Notes under the pieces: model-generated
Seen by the model: the letters and a program-made list of their open reading frames with translations, nothing else
Told to the model about the DNA's origin: nothing
The model's database searches: none
Position numbers and translations under genes: made by a program
IMG/VR virus record: IMGVR_UViG_3300042991_000365
Location: 1 to 64,000 of that record
Direction: 5' to 3' (one strand)
From: a virus
Length of the DNA stretch: 64,000 bases
Part shown: positions 17,276-54,136 of the stretch, piece by piece
Layout: every line of letters starts with the position of its first letter
Numbering within the stretch: the stretch's first letter is position 1

Positions 17276-17899
17276 ATGGAATTAAGATTTAAATATCAAA
17301 GAACACCTCATTTAATGTGGTCAAAAGGTTGTACTTCAGATGATAAAATGTTATCATCTGTTGAACATTTTTTTGGAAAAGAAATTATAATGACCGAAAA
17401 ACGTGATGGTGAAAATTCCACGATATATAAAGATTATATGCATGCTCGTTCATTAGATTCAGTTGATCATCCATCACGACACTGGCTAAAAAACTTACAT
17501 GGAACAATGGGGTACAATATTCCAGATGGTTGGAGAGTGTGTGGTGAAAATCTTTATGCTAAACATAGCCTTCATTATACAAGCTTAAAAAGCTATTTTG
17601 AAGTATTCTCAATATGGAATGAAAATAATGTGTGTTTATCTTTTGATGATACATTAGAATGGTGTGAATTATTAGGTTTAGTTCATGTTCCAGTTTTATG
17701 GAGAGGTATATTTGATGAACAATTATTAAGAAATTATAAAATTGATACTGAAAAGCAAGAAGGCTATGTAATACAATTAGCAGACAGTTTTAAATATGAA
17801 GATTTTAGTACATCGGTAGCTAAATGGGTGAGAGAAAATCATGTTACCACAAATAATCATTGGATGTATGAAAAAATAATACCAAATATTTTGGTATAA
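17276..17899 (+). CDS. RNA ligase
   Basis: 207 residues with the nucleotidyltransferase motifs in order: motif I EKRDGEN with Lys42 as the adenylated residue, motif III CGENLYAKHS at 89-98, IIIa FEVFSIW at 108-114, motif IV EGYVI at 162-166 and motif V VAKWVR at 181-186. This is a compact member of the Rnl2-like RNA ligase family, which seals RNA ends with ATP; phages use them to repair tRNAs cleaved by host defences. No polynucleotide kinase lies nearby. Confidence 0.85.
   Translation: MELRFKYQRTPHLMWSKGCTSDDKMLSSVEHFFGKEIIMTEKRDGENSTIYKDYMHARSLDSVDHPSRHWLKNLHGTMGYNIPDGWRVCGENLYAKHSLHYTSLKSYFEVFSIWNENNVCLSFDDTLEWCELLGLVHVPVLWRGIFDEQLLRNYKIDTEKQEGYVIQLADSFKYEDFSTSVAKWVRENHVTTNNHWMYEKIIPNILV
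17337..17360 (+). repeat. perfect inverted repeat inside RNA ligase gene
   Basis: CAGATGATAA, loop AATG, TTATCATCTG: a 10-bp perfect stem about 60 bases into the coding sequence. It may be a chance result of codons or an mRNA hairpin close to the start. Confidence 0.5.
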
Positions 17900-25147: not shown

Positions 25148-26113
25148 TTATTTTATTTTGAGATATTTTTGACTTGGTTTGATTCTTATAAACTTACTAG
25201 AATTAATTTCCCTTTTAGTAATACACAAATTTTCTATATTACCAATAACATAAGGATCAATATTTTCGGTAAAACCCTGAAATATTGAAATTTTATGATC
25301 TATTGATGGATATTTTTTATCTAAATAATGTAAATTTAAATTATCTTTAATATATTCATTATCGTAATAATCATATCCATTCCAATTATAAAATAATTCT
25401 TTTTTATATTTATAAATTAATCTTCTAGTAATCTTTCTATATTTTTCAAATTCAGTTAATTTATCTTCTGATATAATTAAATTTCTTTTTATTTTTGTTT
25501 TATTAGCTTTTTTTGATGCTTTTTTTACAATCTTATCTATAAACATTATATTATATTGTCCATATCTTTCTAAGCATGTAATTTGACCTTTCTTTTTTAT
25601 TTCATCAACTAACATAACATTTTCAACACCATATTTATCTAAACAAGTTTTCTTCTTTTTCTCATTTATTAAATTATAATAATTATTTAAATCACCATGT
25701 TTTGCTATAATATGTTTTTTTAATATGTTTGATCTTTCTTTTTTTGATGTTTTTTTGTTATTTTGTTTCATAGTTTTTGAAACTTTATTTGATATTTCAT
25801 TAACTAACATAACATTTTCAACACCATACTTTTCAAGATTGGTTTTTTTTATTCTACAATATTTACATTCTTTACAATAATATAATAAAGAATTGTTTCT
25901 TATAGTGGATTCATAATAAATTTTATATTTAATTTTTAGTTCTTTTTTACAATTATCGCATATAACCGAAACAATTGCACCAGAACCTTTATGAATATCT
26001 TTTGTATAAACTTCAATCTCATCTTTGGTGTTTACAATTTTATATCCTAACTTTAAATAATGATTTAGAATAGAAATTCGTAATTTAATTTTTATCAGTT
26101 CTTGTTTTAACAT
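25148..26113 (-). CDS. HNH-type homing endonuclease with KYGVEN repeats
   Basis: 321 residues. An N-terminal CxNC/CKEC zinc region is followed by repeated units LEKYGVENVMLVNEI, LDKYGVENVMLVDEI and LERYGQYNIMFIDKI at about 90-200. The C-terminus has an HNH-like site: SIDHKISIFQGF, then GNIENLCITKREIN with the conserved Asn. Similar repeat proteins are mobile phage endonucleases. It lies between the vWA gene and its likely partner. Confidence 0.7.
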   Translation of the reverse strand: MLKQELIKIKLRISILNHYLKLGYKIVNTKDEIEVYTKDIHKGSGAIVSVICDNCKKELKIKYKIYYESTIRNNSLLYYCKECKYCRIKKTNLEKYGVENVMLVNEISNKVSKTMKQNNKKTSKKERSNILKKHIIAKHGDLNNYYNLINEKKKKTCLDKYGVENVMLVDEIKKKGQITCLERYGQYNIMFIDKIVKKASKKANKTKIKRNLIISEDKLTEFEKYRKITRRLIYKYKKELFYNWNGYDYYDNEYIKDNLNLHYLDKKYPSIDHKISIFQGFTENIDPYVIGNIENLCITKREINSSKFIRIKPSQKYLKIK

Positions 26114-27199: not shown

Positions 27200-28183
27200 T
27201 TAATATTTTTTCTTAAATTTTACATAATTTATTTTTTCTAATAAATAATATAAATTATGTTTTTGAATATAATAATAACATTTATTAGATTTTTTATAAA
27301 ATTCATTAAATGTAGTATATTTAGATATTTCTTCTTCGCACATTTTAATATTCCAATAAATAACATCTTTATGCATATGTTTAGTATATTCATTTAATAA
27401 TTTCAATCTATATAATTTACGATATAAACTATATTCTTTAGATTTAAAATCTCTATAATTATTATATTTGTTTGTAATTTCTTTAATTTTATCATAATCC
27501 AATATACTATTATTTACATATATTAATATATCATTTTCAGAAATATTAATTATATTATCATCAATTATATTTGTATTACAATGTTTATTAATTTTGTTTA
27601 AATATTTTTTTAATTGATATTTAATTGAATCTTTTTCATTTATTCTAATTAACATTATATTATTTTTAATGCATAATTCATCTTTTTTATTATCTATTTC
27701 TGGACGATGCCAATACAAACCATCATATTCAAAGGCTAATTTATAATATGGAATATAAATATCTAATTCATATGGTTTAATTATTTTTTTATTATTAAAT
27801 AAAATTTCTTTATTAAATAATTTGGATACAATATATTTTAATATTAACTCTGGTCTACTTATATTTTGTGAAATCATATGAGAACAAATATCATTAATTA
27901 TTCCCATTTTAATAGCAGCACAGTAAGCACTATTATCTTGCTCTCTAAAATCTATTTTAGTTTTATAACTTTTTGCTATAATTTTTAAATTTTCATAAGA
28001 TAAATTCCTTGTTCTTGTTTTATTTATTTTTGTCCTAAGTTCTTTATTTTTATATAATTTTAAATATCTAGCCTTTCCTTGTACACTTGGTTTAGTTGTA
28101 TTTAAAAATTTAGAAATTTCTAAATTTGTATTATCTGGATATAACTTAATTAGTTTATCTAATTTATCCTTTGTCCATTTCAT
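27200..28183 (-). CDS. Vsr-like (EDxHD) homing endonuclease
   Basis: 327 residues. The N-terminus (WTKDKLDKLIKLYPDNTNLE) is a Myb-like/HTH DNA-binding module. The central block IKPYELDIYIPYYKLAFEYD followed by GLYWHRPEID matches the Vsr-like EDxHD nuclease family of phage homing enzymes. The C-terminal part repeats helical DNA-binding-like segments. It is coupled by an ATGA overlap to a ribbon-helix-helix gene just upstream. Confidence 0.75.
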   Translation of the reverse strand: MKWTKDKLDKLIKLYPDNTNLEISKFLNTTKPSVQGKARYLKLYKNKELRTKINKTRTRNLSYENLKIIAKSYKTKIDFREQDNSAYCAAIKMGIINDICSHMISQNISRPELILKYIVSKLFNKEILFNNKKIIKPYELDIYIPYYKLAFEYDGLYWHRPEIDNKKDELCIKNNIMLIRINEKDSIKYQLKKYLNKINKHCNTNIIDDNIINISENDILIYVNNSILDYDKIKEITNKYNNYRDFKSKEYSLYRKLYRLKLLNEYTKHMHKDVIYWNIKMCEEEISKYTTFNEFYKKSNKCYYYIQKHNLYYLLEKINYVKFKKKY

Positions 28184-32442: not shown

Positions 32443-32471
32443 AAAAATTATTTTTTTTTAAGTTAAAAAAA

Positions 32472-32503
32472 AACCTCAATACTCTTTCAAATATTAAGGT
32501 TTT
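32472..32503 (-). terminator. terminator of the 1-kb RNA
   Basis: On the minus strand AACCTTAATA and TATTGAGGTT form a 10-bp stem with one mismatch, followed by a run of ten T. Confidence 0.8.
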
Positions 32504-33442
32504 AATTTAATTATGGCTGAGAATAAGCCTCATTGTAGAATTCTTTGGAAACCTTATTTTTTAGTTTCTTTTCCACTATCTTTTGGATAGTAAATCCTAA
32601 CGACGGTTTTTTAAGTTAACCACTCTTTATGTTGTCAAATACTCTCTTGTTACTCATAACTTCTTTAAGATGCCTCTCAAACTAAACCTTGCGGGTATAA
32701 AGTACTTTCTCAAAAATCTTGCAGGAATTGGGTTCCATACAAGGCTGTGAACACTCACAACTAAGTAGTCGCCTTTCTCTGACAACAGGTGAACTCTTTT
32801 CCTTTTATTTTATTTTTAATTTTTACATCAATTGTAATTTAAAAGTAACTAGTTTGTGGATTTATGAAAGTTGCGGTTCACCAATTAGCTTTCCCATCTT
32901 TTGAACAGAAAAATACTAAACAACTCTCTGCGATATCCCTATCACCATATTTTAAGTCAACTAGAACTTGTCAAATGTCTTGGTAAACATTAGTTTACAA
33001 AAATAACAGCACCACCTGTACATTATGTAAATGTTCACATTACCTTTCGGTTTTAAGCTAACTTTCATATTGAATAACGCAATGATGTGATTGGACGTCA
33101 CACTTTTTGCAATATATTCTTTGGATTATTCTTGTTGCTGTTCCCAGCTCACCAAGACTACCCACATAGCCCTGGCATTAAACCACTTTCTCTACAGTGT
33201 TACCCTCGATACTTAAGGTTTAACGATATTCCAATTGCCTGCTTGAGCAAAATATTTCTATTTTGCCGCAAGTGACTTAAACTAATAATCCACTCACTTT
33301 ATACTACTTTCATAGTTTATTTAAAGACTACAGGCAGCCTATTTATCTGTTTTCATTAAACATATCATCAACCGAAATTGACTCTACACCTAATTAAAAA
33401 CAGAGTATATTTTTTCAAAAAAAATCAAAGAACTTATTAAAA

Positions 33443-33466
33443 AATGTTAGCACTTCTGCTAACATT
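33443..33466 (-). repeat. 5' hairpin of the 1-kb RNA
   Basis: Perfect 10-bp stem AATGTTAGCA / TGCTAACATT with loop GAAG on the minus strand, about 5 bases from the predicted start and followed by six T. It may protect the 5' end, or act as an early terminator (attenuator). Confidence 0.75.
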
Positions 33467-33498
33467 AAATTATAGTGCAAAAATAAAAAAAGTTTTTG
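33454..33498. repeat. 45-base direct repeat, copy 1 (carries promoter)
   Basis: Identical over 45 bases to 33546-33590, 92 bases away. Each copy contains the -7 box and start site of a minus-strand promoter. Confidence 0.9.
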
Positions 33499-33509
33499 TT
33501 TTCACCAAA
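33478..33509 (-). promoter_or_regulatory. proximal promoter of the 1-kb RNA
   Basis: On the minus strand TTTG (33509-33506), a 20-base spacer, then TATTTTTG (33485-33478) and CACTATA, where transcription should begin. Both boxes and the spacing fit the Bacteroidota consensus. Confidence 0.8.
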
Positions 33510-33545
33510 TATTTTTTACATTTTTTTCAAAATAATTTTTAACAT

Positions 33546-33590
33546 TTCTGCTAACATTAAATTATAGTGCAAAAATAAAAAAAGTTTTTG
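33546..33590. repeat. 45-base direct repeat, copy 2 (carries promoter)
   Basis: Identical to 33454-33498. Past the repeat the hairpin is incomplete in this copy. Confidence 0.9.
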
Positions 33591-33600
33591 ATTTTACAAA
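33570..33600 (-). promoter_or_regulatory. distal promoter of the 1-kb RNA
   Basis: On the minus strand TTTG (33600-33597), a 19-base spacer and TATTTTTG (33577-33570). It duplicates the proximal promoter, 92 bases upstream. Confidence 0.75.
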
Positions 33601-33607
33601 AAAAAAA

Positions 33608-34342
33608 TTAAAAAATTTTATCATCTGTTGAAAGTTTTCCATATTCAATGTTATTATATTCATTTGGATTCATTATTAATTTTTCTAAATAATAATCTGA
33701 TATTAATCTATTACTTGCATTAGAATCTAATAACGATACTTTTTTATCATCTAAATATTTTCCTTTATATGGATACATTTCTATAAAATCATCTTGTTGT
33801 TCTATACATGGTGATAAGTGTTCACTTAAATAATATACATTTTTATTAATGTATGTAGTAAATCTTATTCTTAAATCGTGATCTTCATATCCATAATTTT
33901 TCATTGTTTCAATATAACCACCCAATTTATCGAAATTTTCTTTAGTCATTGCTATTCTACCAGCATTTTTTTGAAGTGTGGCTATAATAATATTGATATT
34001 TCTATTAAAATAATAATTGATGGCTGATATATAATCTTCTGTAATGTAATTATCACAATCCAAATCTATTGATATTTCACCAGTTGAATATCTATGAGCT
34101 ATGTTTTTTGCATGAAATCTATCAAAATATTGTTTGTTTGCAACTTTTATATAAATAATATATTTATCTTCTATTTCTTTGCTAAAATTTTTCACCATGA
34201 ATTCATGTAAATCATCTTTACTATCATAATTTACTAATACTAATTCATAATTATATTTTTTTATTAAAGGTATATTTTTAAATATTGTAGCCTTTAAATA
34301 TTCACTTCTATTCATGCATGTAGAGCAAAAAGAAAACTTCAT
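33608..34342 (-). CDS. GT-A glycosyltransferase
   Basis: 244 residues. It opens FSFCSTCMNRSEYLKAT, with the nucleotide-sugar/metal motif DLDCD at 93-97 and the catalytic region KLGGYIETMKNYGYEDHDLR near 137-156 (G-x-E-D-x-D as in galactosyl- and GalNAc-transferases). No membrane segment. Phages use such enzymes to modify host surface sugars or their own DNA or proteins. It lies just upstream of the RNA promoters, same strand. Confidence 0.8.
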   Translation of the reverse strand: MKFSFCSTCMNRSEYLKATIFKNIPLIKKYNYELVLVNYDSKDDLHEFMVKNFSKEIEDKYIIYIKVANKQYFDRFHAKNIAHRYSTGEISIDLDCDNYITEDYISAINYYFNRNINIIIATLQKNAGRIAMTKENFDKLGGYIETMKNYGYEDHDLRIRFTTYINKNVYYLSEHLSPCIEQQDDFIEMYPYKGKYLDDKKVSLLDSNASNRLISDYYLEKLIMNPNEYNNIEYGKLSTDDKIF

Positions 34343-34387: not shown

Positions 34388-34406
34388 ATTACACTAAAGA
34401 TGTAAT
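34388..34406 (-). repeat. IS605-type end hairpin
   Basis: Minus strand ATTACA, loop TCTTTAG, TGTAAT. The loop TCTTTAG is the same as in both end hairpins of the IS605 element at 45-47 kb, and here too the tnpB stop codon lies in the hairpin, so this is a right end. Confidence 0.7.
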
Positions 34407-35612
34407 GGTTTCGTTAAAAAGATTAAACTTTTTAACAACATTAGATAAATCTAATGGCTCGTTCATAGAAGCAAAATGATTTTCAAACCATCTGTGTAGT
34501 ATATTTATGGCTGAATTTAAATCACGGTCTATAATTATGGTATCTGACAATTGAACTTTTCTATCTTTCAATTCAATTTTGTTTTTAAATAATTTTCCAG
34601 TCAAACAATTTAATTGTGTCGTCCACTTTTCATCAATCTTTGTTAAATTGGTATTATTTGTTTGACATTTATATTTTAAAAATTCTAAAAACATATTAAT
34701 ATTAGATTTATGAAATGATTTACGAATTGTTTTTTTATTTTCATTCACACCATCACTTAACATTAATTTTTTGACATTCAGATCACCAATTACAATTGTG
34801 TTGTAATTCATATTCACTAATTTTTTACTCTGAATATGTAGAGTTTGATTTATTTGTTGATTTTTTTTATAATAACATTTATTTAATGTTCTTTTTAATA
34901 GTAAATTTCTATTTGAACCTTTTATTGTTTTACTTCTTTTATTCTGTATTTTCGCTATCTGTTTTTGATAATAATTATTTATTTTCTTTGATTTATTTTT
35001 AATAATAACTTCATTGCCTTTATTATCTATACCATGACATAATTTATCTAAGCCTAAATCAATAGCAAGAACTCTGGTATTAATTAAAATTTCATCTTTA
35101 TATTTTATACTATCATCAATAACTATATCACACAACCATTTGTTTCTAATAAATTTAATTCTTATCTCTTTAATATTTAATTCATTTAAATTTAAATTTG
35201 ATTTATATTTAAATGATATTTTATTGATAATTATTATATTATTATTTTTAATAATCCAACCTGATTGATTCCAACAGATAGAATGATAATTATTATTTTC
35301 TATTTTTCTTGGTGGTCTTGCTGATTTGTCCTTTTTTATTAAATTTAAAAATGAACGATATGATCCATATAATTCAGTAGATATAGTTTGAGTTGCTTTT
35401 GAATTTAATTTTTTCCAATCTGAAAATTGCTCCTTTAATTCGGGAAGCATATTATTTAAATCAAATTTATTAAATATAGTTTTATTTGTTTCATAGGATT
35501 GTTGTTGTATATCAAGTAACTTATTCCATATATCTTTTCTTATGTCAGATAATTTTTGTAATTGATTTATTTGTTCTTTTGATGGAAATAATCTTATTTG
35601 ATATGTCTTCAA
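34389..35612 (-). CDS. lone TnpB-like protein with degenerate RuvC site
   Basis: 407 residues, no tnpA beside it. RuvC-I Asp is present (LAIDLGLDKL) and RuvC-III Asp too (IIDRDLNSAINIL). In the RuvC-II position the catalytic Glu is Gly: TIVIGDLNVKKL, against LISIEDLNVKGM in the intact TnpB at 45643. The zinc ribbon between RuvC-II and -III has lost its cysteines (TTQLNCLTGKLFKNKIELKD). Known TnpBs are RNA-guided DNA nucleases; nuclease-dead relatives (TldR) act as RNA-guided repressors. Decay of an IS1341-type element is the alternative. Confidence 0.8.
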   Translation of the reverse strand: MKTYQIRLFPSKEQINQLQKLSDIRKDIWNKLLDIQQQSYETNKTIFNKFDLNNMLPELKEQFSDWKKLNSKATQTISTELYGSYRSFLNLIKKDKSARPPRKIENNNYHSICWNQSGWIIKNNNIIIINKISFKYKSNLNLNELNIKEIRIKFIRNKWLCDIVIDDSIKYKDEILINTRVLAIDLGLDKLCHGIDNKGNEVIIKNKSKKINNYYQKQIAKIQNKRSKTIKGSNRNLLLKRTLNKCYYKKNQQINQTLHIQSKKLVNMNYNTIVIGDLNVKKLMLSDGVNENKKTIRKSFHKSNINMFLEFLKYKCQTNNTNLTKIDEKWTTQLNCLTGKLFKNKIELKDRKVQLSDTIIIDRDLNSAINILHRWFENHFASMNEPLDLSNVVKKFNLFNETITSLV

Positions 35613-42993: not shown

Positions 42994-43875
42994 CTATTTT
43001 TTAGTAAAAAATTCAGATAACCATTTATTTATTCTAGACACTTTATATGAATATGGCGATTTTATACTAAACTCGCCTCTACCATTATATTTTAGAGATT
43101 CTTCTTTACATTTTTCTTTTGTCCAATAATCTCTTAAAATTTTTTTATCACCCATATGTTCACACAATTCATCTAACCAGCCATTATTTAATGCTGAAGT
43201 ATAAGCAGATTTACAATTTTTACAAAAATTAAATCTTGTATTATATTTTAACGCTTCATTTTTACAATTTTCTTTTGTCCAATTATTTCTATTATTCATA
43301 TGTTTACACACATCATCTAACCAATTATTTAATAAACTTGATCTATATGCACCAGCAGATTTTTTACAAAAATCATTTCTCGTATTATATTTTAGAGCTT
43401 CTATTTCACAGTTTTCTTTAGTCCATTTTTTTGTGTGTCCACCTAAACTTCCTGTTTTTGATTTATTTAAAATGTTCCAATTATTTTTTTTATATTCCAA
43501 AACATAATCATGTTCCAATTTTATAGCATTATCTACATCAATATAATTAGTTAATTGCTTTAATATATAATTTGAATTTTTTTCAATGTGTTTATAAACC
43601 GTTCCTTTTTTAAGATGTCTTTGATTTCTTTTATAAATATTTGATGTTAATCCAACATAAGAGTAATTATCTGAAAATTCATAAACATAAATACACCTTT
43701 TATATTTATTTCCAACAGCAACCATATGATTACATATATCATCTAAACATTTATATCTATTTTTAGCAGCACTATATGCACCCATAGAACATTTACTAAA
43801 TTCTGTTCTTGATTTATATTTTAATGCTTCGTTTTTACAATTTTCCTTTGTCCAATAATTATTTGGTTTTCTCAT
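42994..43875 (-). CDS. GIY-YIG endonuclease between repeated W-T-K-E-N-C modules
   Basis: 293 residues from ATG 43875. A GIY-YIG core (CIYVYEFSDNYSYVGLTSNI with Arg and a downstream Glu) lies near 60-140. Around it are four copies of a roughly 45-residue module: WTKENCKNEALKY, R-x-x-F-x-K, AYxxA, WLDDxCxHM. The modules probably bind DNA. Such proteins are mobile nucleases of large phages. It follows the minus-strand unknown gene at 43984. Confidence 0.8.
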   Translation of the reverse strand: MRKPNNYWTKENCKNEALKYKSRTEFSKCSMGAYSAAKNRYKCLDDICNHMVAVGNKYKRCIYVYEFSDNYSYVGLTSNIYKRNQRHLKKGTVYKHIEKNSNYILKQLTNYIDVDNAIKLEHDYVLEYKKNNWNILNKSKTGSLGGHTKKWTKENCEIEALKYNTRNDFCKKSAGAYRSSLLNNWLDDVCKHMNNRNNWTKENCKNEALKYNTRFNFCKNCKSAYTSALNNGWLDELCEHMGDKKILRDYWTKEKCKEESLKYNGRGEFSIKSPYSYKVSRINKWLSEFFTKK

Positions 43876-43983
43876 TTTTATTTTTATATCTATATATAAA
43901 AATATCATATCGTAAAGTGGAGTGTGACCAATTAATTAATTTACAAATTACTAATATTTTTTAATTATTTATTATAAAAATTT

Positions 43984-45642: not shown

Positions 45643-46818
45643 ATGAAAGTCATTAATAAGGTATATAAATTTAGAATTTACCCAAATAAAGAACAAGAAA
45701 TATTGTTATCTAAACATTTTGGTTGTTCAAGATTTGTATATAATTACTTTTTAAATGAAAGAAAAGAACAATATCAAAAAGATAATAAATCAGATAATTA
45801 CTATAAACAAGCAAAATCTTTAACTGAATTAAAGAAACAAGAAGAATACAATTGGTTAAAAGAAGTTAATAGTCAAACAATCCAATTTGCTTTAAGAAAT
45901 TTAGACACCGCTTATGATAGATTTTTCAGGAAAATAGCACAATTTCCCAAATTCAAATCAAGAAAACACAAAAATACTTTTACTATACCTCAATTTGGTA
46001 GATTAGAAGAAAATAAAATATTCATTCCTAAATTTAAAGAAGATATCAAAGTTAAATTAGATAAACGTGAAATCAAAGGTAAGATTGGTAAAATGAATAT
46101 TACTAAAACAACAACTGGTAAATATTATGTATCAGTTTTTACTGAACAAGAAATTGAACAATTACCAAAAACAAATAAACAATGTGGCATAGATTTAGGA
46201 TTAAAAGATTTTGTAATAACATCTGATGGAATAAAATACAAAAACAATAGATATACAAAAAAATATTCAAGAGAATTAAAAAAAGCACAACAACATCTTT
46301 CTCGTAAAGAAAAAGGTAGCAATGGGTTTGAAAAACAAAAACTTAAAGTTGCCAAAATTCATGAGAAAATATCAAGTTGTAGATTAGATACCTTACATAA
46401 AGTTAGTAAAGAACTTGTTGAAAATTATGATTTAATAAGTATTGAGGATTTGAATGTAAAAGGTATGATTAAAAATCATAAATTATCTAAACATGTTGCA
46501 GATGCAAGTTGGGGGAATTTTGTTAACCTACTTACTTACAAATGTGATTGGTATGGTAAAGAACTTGTTAAAATTGGTAGGTTCTATCCATCAAGTAAAA
46601 CTTGTAATAGTTGTGGTTGGATAAATCAAAATTTAAAACTTTCAGATAGAAAATGGACTTGTAAATGTGGTGAAACGCATGATAGAGATTTAAACGCAAG
46701 TAAAAACATTTTAAAAGAAGGTTTAAAAATATATGGTAAGGAACTTGCCATTACAAAGGTGGAGAGTAAATTAGACTTTGGAAACAAAGCACACTCTATG
46801 AAACCCGAAACACATTAG
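45643..46818 (+). CDS. tnpB: TnpB RNA-guided nuclease of IS605
   Basis: 391 residues. RuvC-I Asp in GIDLGLKDF, RuvC-II Glu in SIEDLNVKGM, zinc ribbon CNSCG and CKCG, and RuvC-III Asp in HDRDLNASKN are all present, so the nuclease should be active. TnpB uses a guide RNA made from its own 3' end and the element's right end, cutting the donor site to keep the IS. The stop codon lies within the right-end hairpin, as expected for that RNA. Confidence 0.92.
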   Translation: MKVINKVYKFRIYPNKEQEILLSKHFGCSRFVYNYFLNERKEQYQKDNKSDNYYKQAKSLTELKKQEEYNWLKEVNSQTIQFALRNLDTAYDRFFRKIAQFPKFKSRKHKNTFTIPQFGRLEENKIFIPKFKEDIKVKLDKREIKGKIGKMNITKTTTGKYYVSVFTEQEIEQLPKTNKQCGIDLGLKDFVITSDGIKYKNNRYTKKYSRELKKAQQHLSRKEKGSNGFEKQKLKVAKIHEKISSCRLDTLHKVSKELVENYDLISIEDLNVKGMIKNHKLSKHVADASWGNFVNLLTYKCDWYGKELVKIGRFYPSSKTCNSCGWINQNLKLSDRKWTCKCGETHDRDLNASKNILKEGLKIYGKELAITKVESKLDFGNKAHSMKPETH

Positions 46819-51989: not shown

Positions 51990-53082
51990 AACAGAAATAA
52001 CATTAATTAATGGCGATAAAGCCACTATTATAGACACGAATAAAGTTAAAGCTCTTAAATCAGAAAACTACAATTTTATCTTTAATAAGGAAGACGGTTT
52101 CTTTTGTCGTTGGGGAAAAACAGAAAATGATGATGGAGATTTGGAACTTGGAATAACCGAAATTGCGGATATAGAGCTAAGTACCGTGTGTCACGGTGTT
52201 GGTAAACCATGTAGTTTCTGTTACAAAAGCAATGTTGGACATAAAGGTGATAACATGACATTTGATACTTTCAAAAAAGTATATAAAAAATTACCACCAT
52301 CAATCACACAAATTGCGGCTGGAATTGGAGATATAGATGGTAATCCTGATTTATGGCGAATATTTGAATTTTGCAAAGATAATGATACAGCTATAAATGT
52401 GACTATAAATGGAGCAAGAATGACACCAGAATATTATGATAATCTAGCAAAATACTGTGGTGCAGTATCTGTATCAATATATGATAAAGAATTGAGTTAC
52501 AACGCACTACAAGAGTTAACAAGTCGTGGTATGAAACAATGCAACATACATTTTATGATTAGCGAGGAAACCATAGATAAGGCATATGAAATTATGGATG
52601 ATATGAAAACTGATCCAAGATTGAGTAAAATGAATGCAATAGTTTTTCTTTCTTTAAAAAAGAAAGGAAATGCAAAATCTGGATTTACACAATTATCACA
52701 AGATAAATTTGACAAACTTTCTAAATATGCTTTAGATAATAATATTAGTTTTGGTTTCGATAGTTGTAGTAGTCACAAATTCTTACATTATGTTGATTCT
52801 ACTAAAGATTTAGATGAAAAACAAAAAAATGAAATTCGTCAATCAATCGAACCGTGTGAGAGTTCCATTTACTCCAGTTATATTTCTTGTGGTAGTTCAA
52901 CATCAAACCCAAAATATTATCCTTGTAGTTTTTGTGAAGGTGTTAATGATGATTGGAAAGATGGAATAGATGTTTTAGAATGTGATAATTTTTTAAATGA
53001 TATTTGGCAACATGAAAAAACAAAAAAGTTTAGAAAAAAACTTATTAGTTGTGGTCGGGATTGCCCAATTTATAAAATTTGA
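51982..53082 (+). CDS. radical SAM enzyme with variant cysteine motif
   Basis: 366 residues from ATG 51982. The cluster motif is STVCHGVGKPCSFCYKSN, that is C-x6-C-x2-C instead of the usual C-x3-C-x2-C, followed by AGIGDIDGNPDLW and beta strands of a partial TIM barrel. The C-terminal part has six more cysteines (CESS, ISCGSS, YPCSFCEG, LISCGRDCP), like a SPASM/twitch auxiliary cluster. Such enzymes modify peptides or other substrates; no precursor peptide is obvious. Confidence 0.8.
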   Translation: MNKTEITLINGDKATIIDTNKVKALKSENYNFIFNKEDGFFCRWGKTENDDGDLELGITEIADIELSTVCHGVGKPCSFCYKSNVGHKGDNMTFDTFKKVYKKLPPSITQIAAGIGDIDGNPDLWRIFEFCKDNDTAINVTINGARMTPEYYDNLAKYCGAVSVSIYDKELSYNALQELTSRGMKQCNIHFMISEETIDKAYEIMDDMKTDPRLSKMNAIVFLSLKKKGNAKSGFTQLSQDKFDKLSKYALDNNISFGFDSCSSHKFLHYVDSTKDLDEKQKNEIRQSIEPCESSIYSSYISCGSSTSNPKYYPCSFCEGVNDDWKDGIDVLECDNFLNDIWQHEKTKKFRKKLISCGRDCPIYKI

Positions 53083-53972
53083 TTTAGTAATTTTTTAATA
53101 TTTCTATAATCAGTACCTATAATTTTACCAATTTCGTTAAAAGTCATGTGTTTTTCTAAATACATGACTTTTATTTTTTCTATATTTTCATCAGAAAAAA
53201 ATATACGTTTAATTTTAAGTCCATTATCTAAAATAAAATTTGTTATTCTAAGTTCACTTATATCATATTTTTTAGATAATTTACTAATATTTATAAAATT
53301 ATTTTTATAATCATATAGTATATTGTCTCCAATGTTTTTGGGTATTGGTTTATATCCATGTGAATATTTTCCATATTTTCCAAAGCTAGAATTTTTTTCT
53401 CCACTATGGACACCATTATCTTTAAGATATTTAGAAATTTTTTCTTTTTTATCTTTTGACCATTTATTATTATAGTTTGGGTTATTTTCACCAGTAGTTA
53501 TTTTTGAAATTTTGTCTCTATATTCTTTGGTTTTATATTTGTGATTATGATAATTTTCTTTTCTAGTTTTAATATATTTTTCTTTACGTTCATCAGTAAA
53601 CTCAACACCATACATTGGGTTATTTTTTCCTTTACTTGTTCCTCTTTCTTTAATTGTATTACTAATTTTATTCTTAATTTCATCTGTCATTAAATATTTA
53701 TCACCACCATCAGTTAAATTATATCCAATATCTAAATTTGTAGATTTATATTCTGATATCCAAAAAACTTCACGGCTATTCAATTTATCACTATATTCAC
53801 AATATTCTAATATTTCTTTTCTGAAATTATTTTCACCATATTTTTTAATTGCTAATTGCAAAATTGTACCTGAACCTAAATAATTATCAATTTTTTTTGA
53901 TTTATCTATATGTTGTCCTATATAAATTTTACCATTAAGTAAATTTGTTGTTTTATAAATATACATTTTCAT
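53070..53972 (-). CDS. GIY-YIG homing endonuclease
   Basis: 300 residues from the ATG at 53972. The core is MYIYKTTNLLNGKIYIGQHI with YLGSGTILQLAIKKYG, Glu in SREVFWISEY, and GYNLTDGG. The C-terminal half has NUMOD3-like repeats (GKNNPMYG, GENNPNYN, GEKNSSFG) and an HTH near the end. Complete SegA-type mobile nuclease, coupled by overlap to a ribbon-helix-helix gene, facing the radical SAM gene and overlapping its end by 13 bases. Confidence 0.85.
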   Translation of the reverse strand: MKMYIYKTTNLLNGKIYIGQHIDKSKKIDNYLGSGTILQLAIKKYGENNFRKEILEYCEYSDKLNSREVFWISEYKSTNLDIGYNLTDGGDKYLMTDEIKNKISNTIKERGTSKGKNNPMYGVEFTDERKEKYIKTRKENYHNHKYKTKEYRDKISKITTGENNPNYNNKWSKDKKEKISKYLKDNGVHSGEKNSSFGKYGKYSHGYKPIPKNIGDNILYDYKNNFINISKLSKKYDISELRITNFILDNGLKIKRIFFSDENIEKIKVMYLEKHMTFNEIGKIIGTDYRNIKKLLNQIL

Positions 53973-54136
53973 CACAAAATTATTTTTTTAATTTCTTCTT
54001 GATAAATATTTTTTAGATCTTGGTATATAAGCCATTCTATATATTTAGATTTGTTATTAATTGTATTGTTCATTAAGTTATCAAGATTTCTGTCTATTGA
54101 AACCGTCCTGTTTATTTTTGTTTTTATTTTTCCCAT
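53972..54136 (-). CDS. ribbon-helix-helix mini-protein
   Basis: 54 residues: strand KTKINRTVSIDRNL, helix NLMNNTINNKS, then KYIEWLIYQDLKNIYQ, the RHH order. Its stop overlaps the homing endonuclease ATG, as at 28180. Likely dimeric repressor of its own operon. Confidence 0.7.
   Translation of the reverse strand: MGKIKTKINRTVSIDRNLDNLMNNTINNKSKYIEWLIYQDLKNIYQEEIKKIIL

What the first reader, a model, noticed from the sequence alone, without database searches (positions are those of the whole stretch)
32465..33600. A roughly 1-kb highly structured RNA with duplicated promoters in a phage
Seen: an ORF-free, G+C-richer stretch on the minus strand with two consensus Bacteroidota promoters in a perfect 45-base direct repeat, a 10-bp 5' hairpin, several long-range stems and a poly-T terminator. 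Known: only a few bacterial RNA classes reach this size outside rRNA (GOLLD, ROOL, OLE, HEARO and others), and the first two sit in phages. Inference: a phage ornate RNA, either a diverged member of one of these or a new class.
Basis: partly seen in the sequence, partly recalled or inferred. Interest (0 to 1): 0.92.

Follow-up and report, generated by a model that had tools for sequence, protein, structure and literature searches.

The report
Phage GOLLD RNA with rRNA-style leader
This is a member of a known family of giant phage RNAs (GOLLD, whose solved member assembles into an RNA-only cage); it and nearly all relatives with the same 5' domain found in metagenome viruses start with the short signal that the presumed Bacteroidota hosts put in front of their ribosomal RNA, which suggests that the phages borrow the host's ribosomal-RNA transcription machinery to make it.

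Summary
Rfam GOLLD matches window 32514-32928 (minus) end to end (278.9 bits, cutoff 150, E 1.6e-78); its model covers only the 3' domain. The 5' domain (33345-32929) is homologous to full-length GOLLDs from freshwater viral contigs. A consensus fold made without the window predicts 208 of 234 of its pairs (about 45% when slid), with 62 double-sided changes. It is not a new RNA class.

What I did not find described before: the leader. Between promoter 2 and the RNA body lies GTTCTTTGA (33425-33433), the boxA antitermination motif of Bacteroidia 16S rRNA leaders. It occurs in the 250-nt leader of 48 of 52 GOLLD clusters (background 0.016 per 250 nt), at variable spacing; a divergent GOLLD clade lacks it. 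Elsewhere in these phages, promoter+boxA units precede tmRNA, tRNA and unidentified units (0 of 32 with an ORF of 100 aa or more close by). Relatives often carry initiator-like tRNA-Met beside GOLLD; all five contigs over 120 kb tested carry bS21.

Likely working: the host Nus complex loads at boxA so RNA polymerase completes and folds a 1-kb untranslated RNA. This mechanism is inferred.

The parts
33569..33600 (-). promoter 1, Bacteroidota type (TTTG-N19-TATTTTTGC)
   Evidence: 4 exact matches in 64 kb, 0.4 expected
33477..33509 (-). promoter 2, Bacteroidota type (TTTG-N20-TATTTTTGC); closest to boxA
33531..33601 (-). upstream copy of the 71-nt direct repeat (45 nt identical, 33590-33546); its hairpin half has decayed
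33439..33509 (-). downstream copy of the direct repeat
33443..33466 (-). leader hairpin (10 bp, AATGTTAGCAGAAGTGCTAACATT), in the position of a boxB-like hairpin; a U6 run follows, so an attenuator is possible
   Evidence: 42 nt before boxA, z -4.7
33425..33433 (-). boxA-like element GTTCTTTGA, identical to the boxA core of most Bacteroidia 16S rRNA leaders sampled
32929..33345 (-). GOLLD 5' domain
   Evidence: homology to other full-length GOLLDs; 114 of 127 pairs predicted without the window are formed
32514..32928 (-). GOLLD 3' domain (Rfam RF02032 model 1-416 of 416)
32788..32856 (-). variable A/U-rich linker inside the 3' domain (approximate limits); no tRNA in it; in the solved GOLLD the linker lies disordered inside the cage
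   Evidence: PMC12286853
32465..32502 (-). intrinsic terminator (14-bp hairpin and T-run)

Best explanation
A GOLLD RNA gene of a phage that probably infects Bacteroidota. A transcript of about 1.0 kb (promoter 2) or 1.1 kb (promoter 1) starts at tandem host-type promoters, carries a leader hairpin and a boxA element, then the two-domain GOLLD RNA, and ends at an intrinsic terminator. Shown by sequence: GOLLD identity, both domains, covariation, and conservation of the boxA leader in this GOLLD clade. Inferred: host NusB-S10 binds boxA and converts RNA polymerase to the rRNA-type antitermination complex, so that a long untranslated RNA is completed, protected from Rho and folded co-transcriptionally. 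The RNA then assembles into the closed homo-multimeric cage seen for GOLLD env-38. The cage's purpose is unknown; initiator-like tRNA-Met, tmRNA and bS21 in related phages suggest a role beside phage takeover of translation.
For: Identity: Rfam GOLLD 278.9 bits over the whole model; blastn matches up to 821 nt across both domains, E to 9e-63; 203 consensus pairs, 131 with compensatory changes; a fold made without the window predicts 208/234 window pairs against 95-110 when slid, 62 double changes. Leader: boxA in 21/22 and 48/52 clusters, 19/20 at 75% clustering, background 0.0164 per 250 nt; information drops from about 2 bits in the core to about 0.2 in the flanks (the first 8 positions were used to pick the site). 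Host: GTTCTTTGA in 9 of 12 Bacteroidia 16S leaders with at least 130 nt upstream, commonly with the same promoter type. Specificity: boxA follows 50 of 70 promoter-like sites before GOLLD and 45 of 328 elsewhere; 0 of 32 unique other units precede an ORF of 100 aa or more within 250 nt, and those identified are tmRNA or tRNA. Function of boxA/Nus in rRNA: PMC5725501, PMC10250234. GOLLD cage: PMC12286853.
Against: No expression, Nus-binding or structural data for this RNA. The divergent GOLLD clade (9 contigs), a 642-kb phage GOLLD (LR756502) and the one ROOL checked have no GTTCTTT in the leader, so boxA is not needed for giant phage RNAs in general. The upstream hairpin is not universal (22 of 52 with z below -1), and in the window a U6 run follows it. 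Related sequences inflate the counts. The host is inferred, not observed.
Confidence: 0.75

Rival explanations
1. GOLLD RNA, but GTTCTTTGA is a structural or protein-binding part of GOLLD itself rather than a transcription signal.
For: It is nearly invariant just before the RNA body.
Against: Its distance to the first conserved element varies from -37 to about -147; the same motif precedes phage tmRNA and tRNAs and host 16S rRNA; a divergent GOLLD clade lacks it.
Confidence: 0.12
2. The leader hairpin 33466-33443 with its U-run is an attenuator or terminator that regulates GOLLD, and boxA is reached only on read-through.
For: It scores as terminator-like and folds much better than shuffles (z -4.7).
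Against: Leader hairpins of homologues, where present, end in sequence such as CCGAAATC before boxA, without a U-run; the window is 77% A+T, so U-runs are common; the upstream repeat copy has lost this hairpin.
Confidence: 0.12
3. The boxA leader is a decoy: abundant GOLLD transcripts titrate NusB/S10 from host rRNA operons and turn host ribosome synthesis down.
For: boxA is host-identical; the most abundant ICP1 transcript is a GOLLD-sized orphan RNA (PMC7567579).
Against: A cis role explains why boxA also precedes phage tmRNA and tRNAs; nothing shows that the leader stays on the mature RNA.
Confidence: 0.06
4. A new class of giant structured RNA.
For: The 5' domain is not covered by the Rfam model.
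Against: The full Rfam GOLLD model matches, and the same 5' domain accompanies Rfam-confirmed GOLLD 3' domains in relatives tested.
Confidence: 0.01

Closest known systems
GOLLD RNA (Rfam RF02032; env-38 cryo-EM 14-mer, PMC12286853)
   Same: Full 3'-domain model, homologous 5' domain in relatives, length over 800 nt, A/U-rich linker, phage-encoded, covarying helices
   Different: Tandem Bacteroidota promoters and a boxA leader; no tRNA in the 64 kb read
Bacteroidia 16S rRNA leaders (rrn boxA antitermination leader)
   Same: TAnnTTTG promoters, sometimes in tandem, then GTTCTTTGA about 75-140 nt before the mature RNA
   Different: Drives a phage RNA, not rRNA; boxC and leader-trailer helix not examined; hairpin position matches E. 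coli boxB but is not universal
boxA outside rRNA (suhB and other genes, PMC5725501)
   Same: The host Nus signal is used outside rRNA operons
   Different: There it precedes protein genes; here stable phage RNAs. A boxA upstream of CRISPR arrays is remembered from the literature, but that paper was not held
ROOL RNA (RF03087)
   Same: Giant phage or plasmid RNA that forms a cage (PMC12286853)
   Different: No Rfam match in the window; the L. salivarius ROOL has no boxA upstream

Membership tests
GOLLD (RF02032) | Rfam covariance model above gathering score over the conserved 3' domain | tested here: met
   278.9 bits against 150, positions 1-416 of 416, not truncated
GOLLD (RF02032) | Less conserved 5' domain upstream, total length about 800 nt or more | tested here: met
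   832-nt body, homologous to other full-length GOLLDs; 114/127 5'-domain pairs formed
GOLLD (RF02032) | Covarying helices in both domains | tested here: met
   131 of 203 pairs with compensatory changes; window: 30 (5') and 32 (3') double changes
GOLLD (RF02032) | Encoded by a phage or prophage | tested here: met
   Record is classed as viral; relatives are viral contigs and two phage records of 634 and 642 kb
GOLLD (RF02032) | Homo-14-mer cage in vitro | not testable with these tools
   Shown for env-38 only (PMC12286853); needs mass photometry or cryo-EM
rrn-type boxA antitermination leader | boxA sequence matching the host rRNA leader | tested here: met
   GTTCTTTGA at 33425-33433; the same core in 9 of 12 Bacteroidia 16S leaders
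rrn-type boxA antitermination leader | Conserved between promoter and RNA | tested here: met
   48 of 52 clusters against 0.016 expected per leader
rrn-type boxA antitermination leader | boxB-like hairpin before boxA | tested here: inconclusive
   Strong in the window (z -4.7), but only 22 of 52 leaders below z -1
rrn-type boxA antitermination leader | Bound by NusB-S10 and gives terminator read-through | not testable with these tools
   Experiment needed
ROOL, OLE, HEARO | Rfam model above gathering score | tested here: not met
   GOLLD was the only match in the window

The most novel reading that the evidence does not exclude
Phages of Bacteroidota place their giant GOLLD RNA, and also tmRNA and tRNA units, under the host's ribosomal-RNA antitermination signal (boxA), so the host Nus complex makes and folds a phage-encoded RNA cage. 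Together with initiator-like tRNA-Met beside GOLLD and bS21 in the same phages, this would make GOLLD part of a ribosome-directed takeover program.
Probability: 0.6. Interest if true: 0.7.

Novelty: new member of a known kind. Interest (0 to 1): 0.5.

Why it matters
GOLLD forms one of the largest known RNA-only assemblies and has no known function. A conserved rRNA-type boxA leader would explain how such long untranslated RNAs are transcribed to the end and folded, and it gives a cheap entry point: a point mutation in boxA. The link to initiator-like tRNA, tmRNA and bS21 in the same phages points at translation as the place to look for function.

Tried and rejected
New RNA class: rejected by the Rfam match. 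GOLLD in cellular genomes by motif: 56 motif hits in genome contigs; 50 of those genomes searched with the GOLLD model, 0 matches, so chance hits. A boxA rule for all giant phage RNAs: rejected, since the divergent GOLLD clade, LR756502 and one ROOL lack it. GOLLD in Lactobacillales and in a larger Bacteroidia sample: the genome search gave no usable answer, so the boxA status of Lactobacillus GOLLDs is untested. Published boxA-GOLLD link: none in the held library; the original 2009 GOLLD paper was not read. bS21 in the window record: none. The window's second GTTCTTTGA (17296-17304) lies at the start of a coding region on the other strand and was set aside as chance. The long-range 5'-to-3' pairs (columns 154-158/896-900) proposed by RNAalifold were not trusted.

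Full report
Observation. The minus strand of 33600-32465 is as described. Two 71-nt direct repeats (89% identical, 45 nt perfect) each hold an exact TTTG-N19/20-TAnnTTTGC promoter; the window has 4 such sites against 0.4 expected. A 10-bp hairpin follows promoter 2, and a 14-bp hairpin with a T-run closes the unit. The stretch has 33% G+C against 23% for the window, and no minus-strand ORF above 46 aa.

Identity. The only Rfam match in the window is GOLLD, RF02032, at 32514-32928 minus, 278.9 bits against a cutoff of 150, model 1-416 of 416. Rfam models only the 3' domain. Fifty viral contigs carry a GOLLD 3' motif; of 50 records searched with the Rfam model, 40 exceed the cutoff. The window aligns with many of them over up to 821 nt, through both domains, E down to 9e-63. 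An alignment of 21 full-length sequences gives 203 consensus pairs, 131 with compensatory changes. A fold computed without the window predicts 208 of 234 pairs in the window (114/127 in the 5' domain, 94/107 in the 3' domain); sliding one arm by 1-3 columns gives 95-110. Of the window's pairs, 62 differ on both sides from the commonest pair. The window therefore holds an intact, diverged GOLLD.

Leader. Reading upstream of the homologues showed a shared arrangement: promoter, sometimes a hairpin, then GTTCTTTGA. The motif GTTCTTT[GA]A lies within 250 nt of the body in 21 of 22 representatives. A second scan with a 5'-domain motif raised the set to 137 usable loci. In 52 clusters at 85% identity, 48 have the motif (50 have GTTCTTT; the other two read GTTCTTAGAA); at 75% clustering, 19 of 20. 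The background in the same contigs is 0.0164 per 250 nt. Aligned on the motif, core columns carry about 2 bits and flanks about 0.2; the first eight positions were used for picking, but A at +8 (49/52) and +9 (43/52) was not. The distance to the body varies from -37 to about -147, so it is not a fixed part of the fold.

What the motif is. Bacteroidia 16S rRNA leaders sampled from GTDB genomes carry GTTCTTTGA in 9 of 12 cases with at least 130 nt upstream (a tenth reads GTTATTTGA), commonly after the same promoter type, sometimes tandem. The gammaproteobacterial boxA consensus is GYTCTTTAANA; NusB-S10 binds it, and the Nus complex promotes rRNA folding and can block Rho (PMC5725501). In E. coli the order is boxB, boxA, boxC, and boxA alone is necessary and sufficient for complex formation (PMC10250234). 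The window order, promoter-hairpin-boxA-RNA, matches this.

Specificity. In the phage contigs boxA follows 50 of 70 promoter-like sites before GOLLD, and 45 of 328 elsewhere. Of 32 unique sites elsewhere, none is followed by an ATG ORF of 100 aa or more starting within 250 nt; those identified are tmRNA (Rfam-confirmed in L005, L013, L188, L276) or tRNA, mostly tRNA-Met, and others are unidentified. So boxA marks stable-RNA units in these phages. The rule has limits: a divergent GOLLD clade, the 642-kb phage LR756502 and the L. salivarius ROOL lack the motif.

Company. In 49 clusters, tRNA-Met(CAT) lies within 500 nt upstream (15 genes) or directly downstream (8) of GOLLD. Most have initiator marks: a C:A or A:A mismatch at 1:72 (some U:A), GAGC/GCTC D-stem, AGG or GGG anticodon stem. 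All five GOLLD contigs above 120 kb that I tested, and one of 83 kb, encode ribosomal protein bS21. Phages of up to 331 kb with bS21 are predicted to infect Bacteroidetes (PMC9723584), in line with the promoters. The window record itself (65.5 kb, a fragment) has no bS21, and the 64 kb read has no tRNA.

Mechanism. Shown: GOLLD identity, leader conservation, promoter type. Inferred: Nus complex loading at boxA, processive transcription and assisted folding, assembly into a closed cage as for env-38 (PMC12286853). In an L. brevis prophage GOLLD accumulates in lytic growth but is dispensable for phage production (reported in PMC7567579), so a conditional role is likely.

Novelty. The RNA is a new member of a known family. 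The boxA leader of this clade was not found described in the held library, but the original GOLLD paper was not available. Interest 0.5: the identity is ordinary, while the leader makes a cheap test of how, and perhaps why, these RNAs are made.

Noticed in passing
L064, L075, L077, L080, L082, L094 and others (GOLLD loci): tRNA genes beside GOLLD are mostly tRNA-Met(CAT) with initiator-like features, upstream or shortly downstream of GOLLD.
   Followed up: partly
G007, G008, G019, G042, G047, G033 (viral contigs): GOLLD-bearing freshwater contigs encode ribosomal protein bS21 (all five above 120 kb that were tested).
   Followed up: partly
L180 8100-, L207 1598-, L211 2215-, L268 8503-, L275 6871- (positions counted on the minus-strand read): Promoter+boxA is followed by a recurrent ORF-less sequence with ACCTGTCC(T/C)ATTAAGnGTnGGnGGT; Rfam does not name it at the places scanned. 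A possible new small-RNA class.
   Followed up: no
L263 7198-, L253 2398- (minus-strand read): Promoter+boxA is followed by an ORF-less sequence GGTTATAGAAACAGTCTAGGTCCGTAGGGCTACTGTTG...GAGGAAAGTGAC, faintly like RNase P RNA; no Rfam match in L263.
   Followed up: no
L051 7880-8474, L013 3940-4517: Phage tmRNA match whose 3' part overlaps a group I intron match; boxA lies just upstream of the tmRNA.
   Followed up: no
window 34389-35612 (-) and 45643-46818 (+): Two TnpB/OrfB-like (IS605, Cas12f1-like TNB) genes, one just upstream of the gene that neighbours the GOLLD unit; no TnpA was looked for.
   Followed up: no
window 25148-26113, 27200-28183, 42994-43908, 53070-53975: Several homing-endonuclease-like genes (HNH, GIY-YIG with NUMOD3), typical of large phages.
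   Followed up: no
window 33608-34342 (-): Glycosyltransferase family 2-like gene directly upstream of the GOLLD promoters.
   Followed up: no
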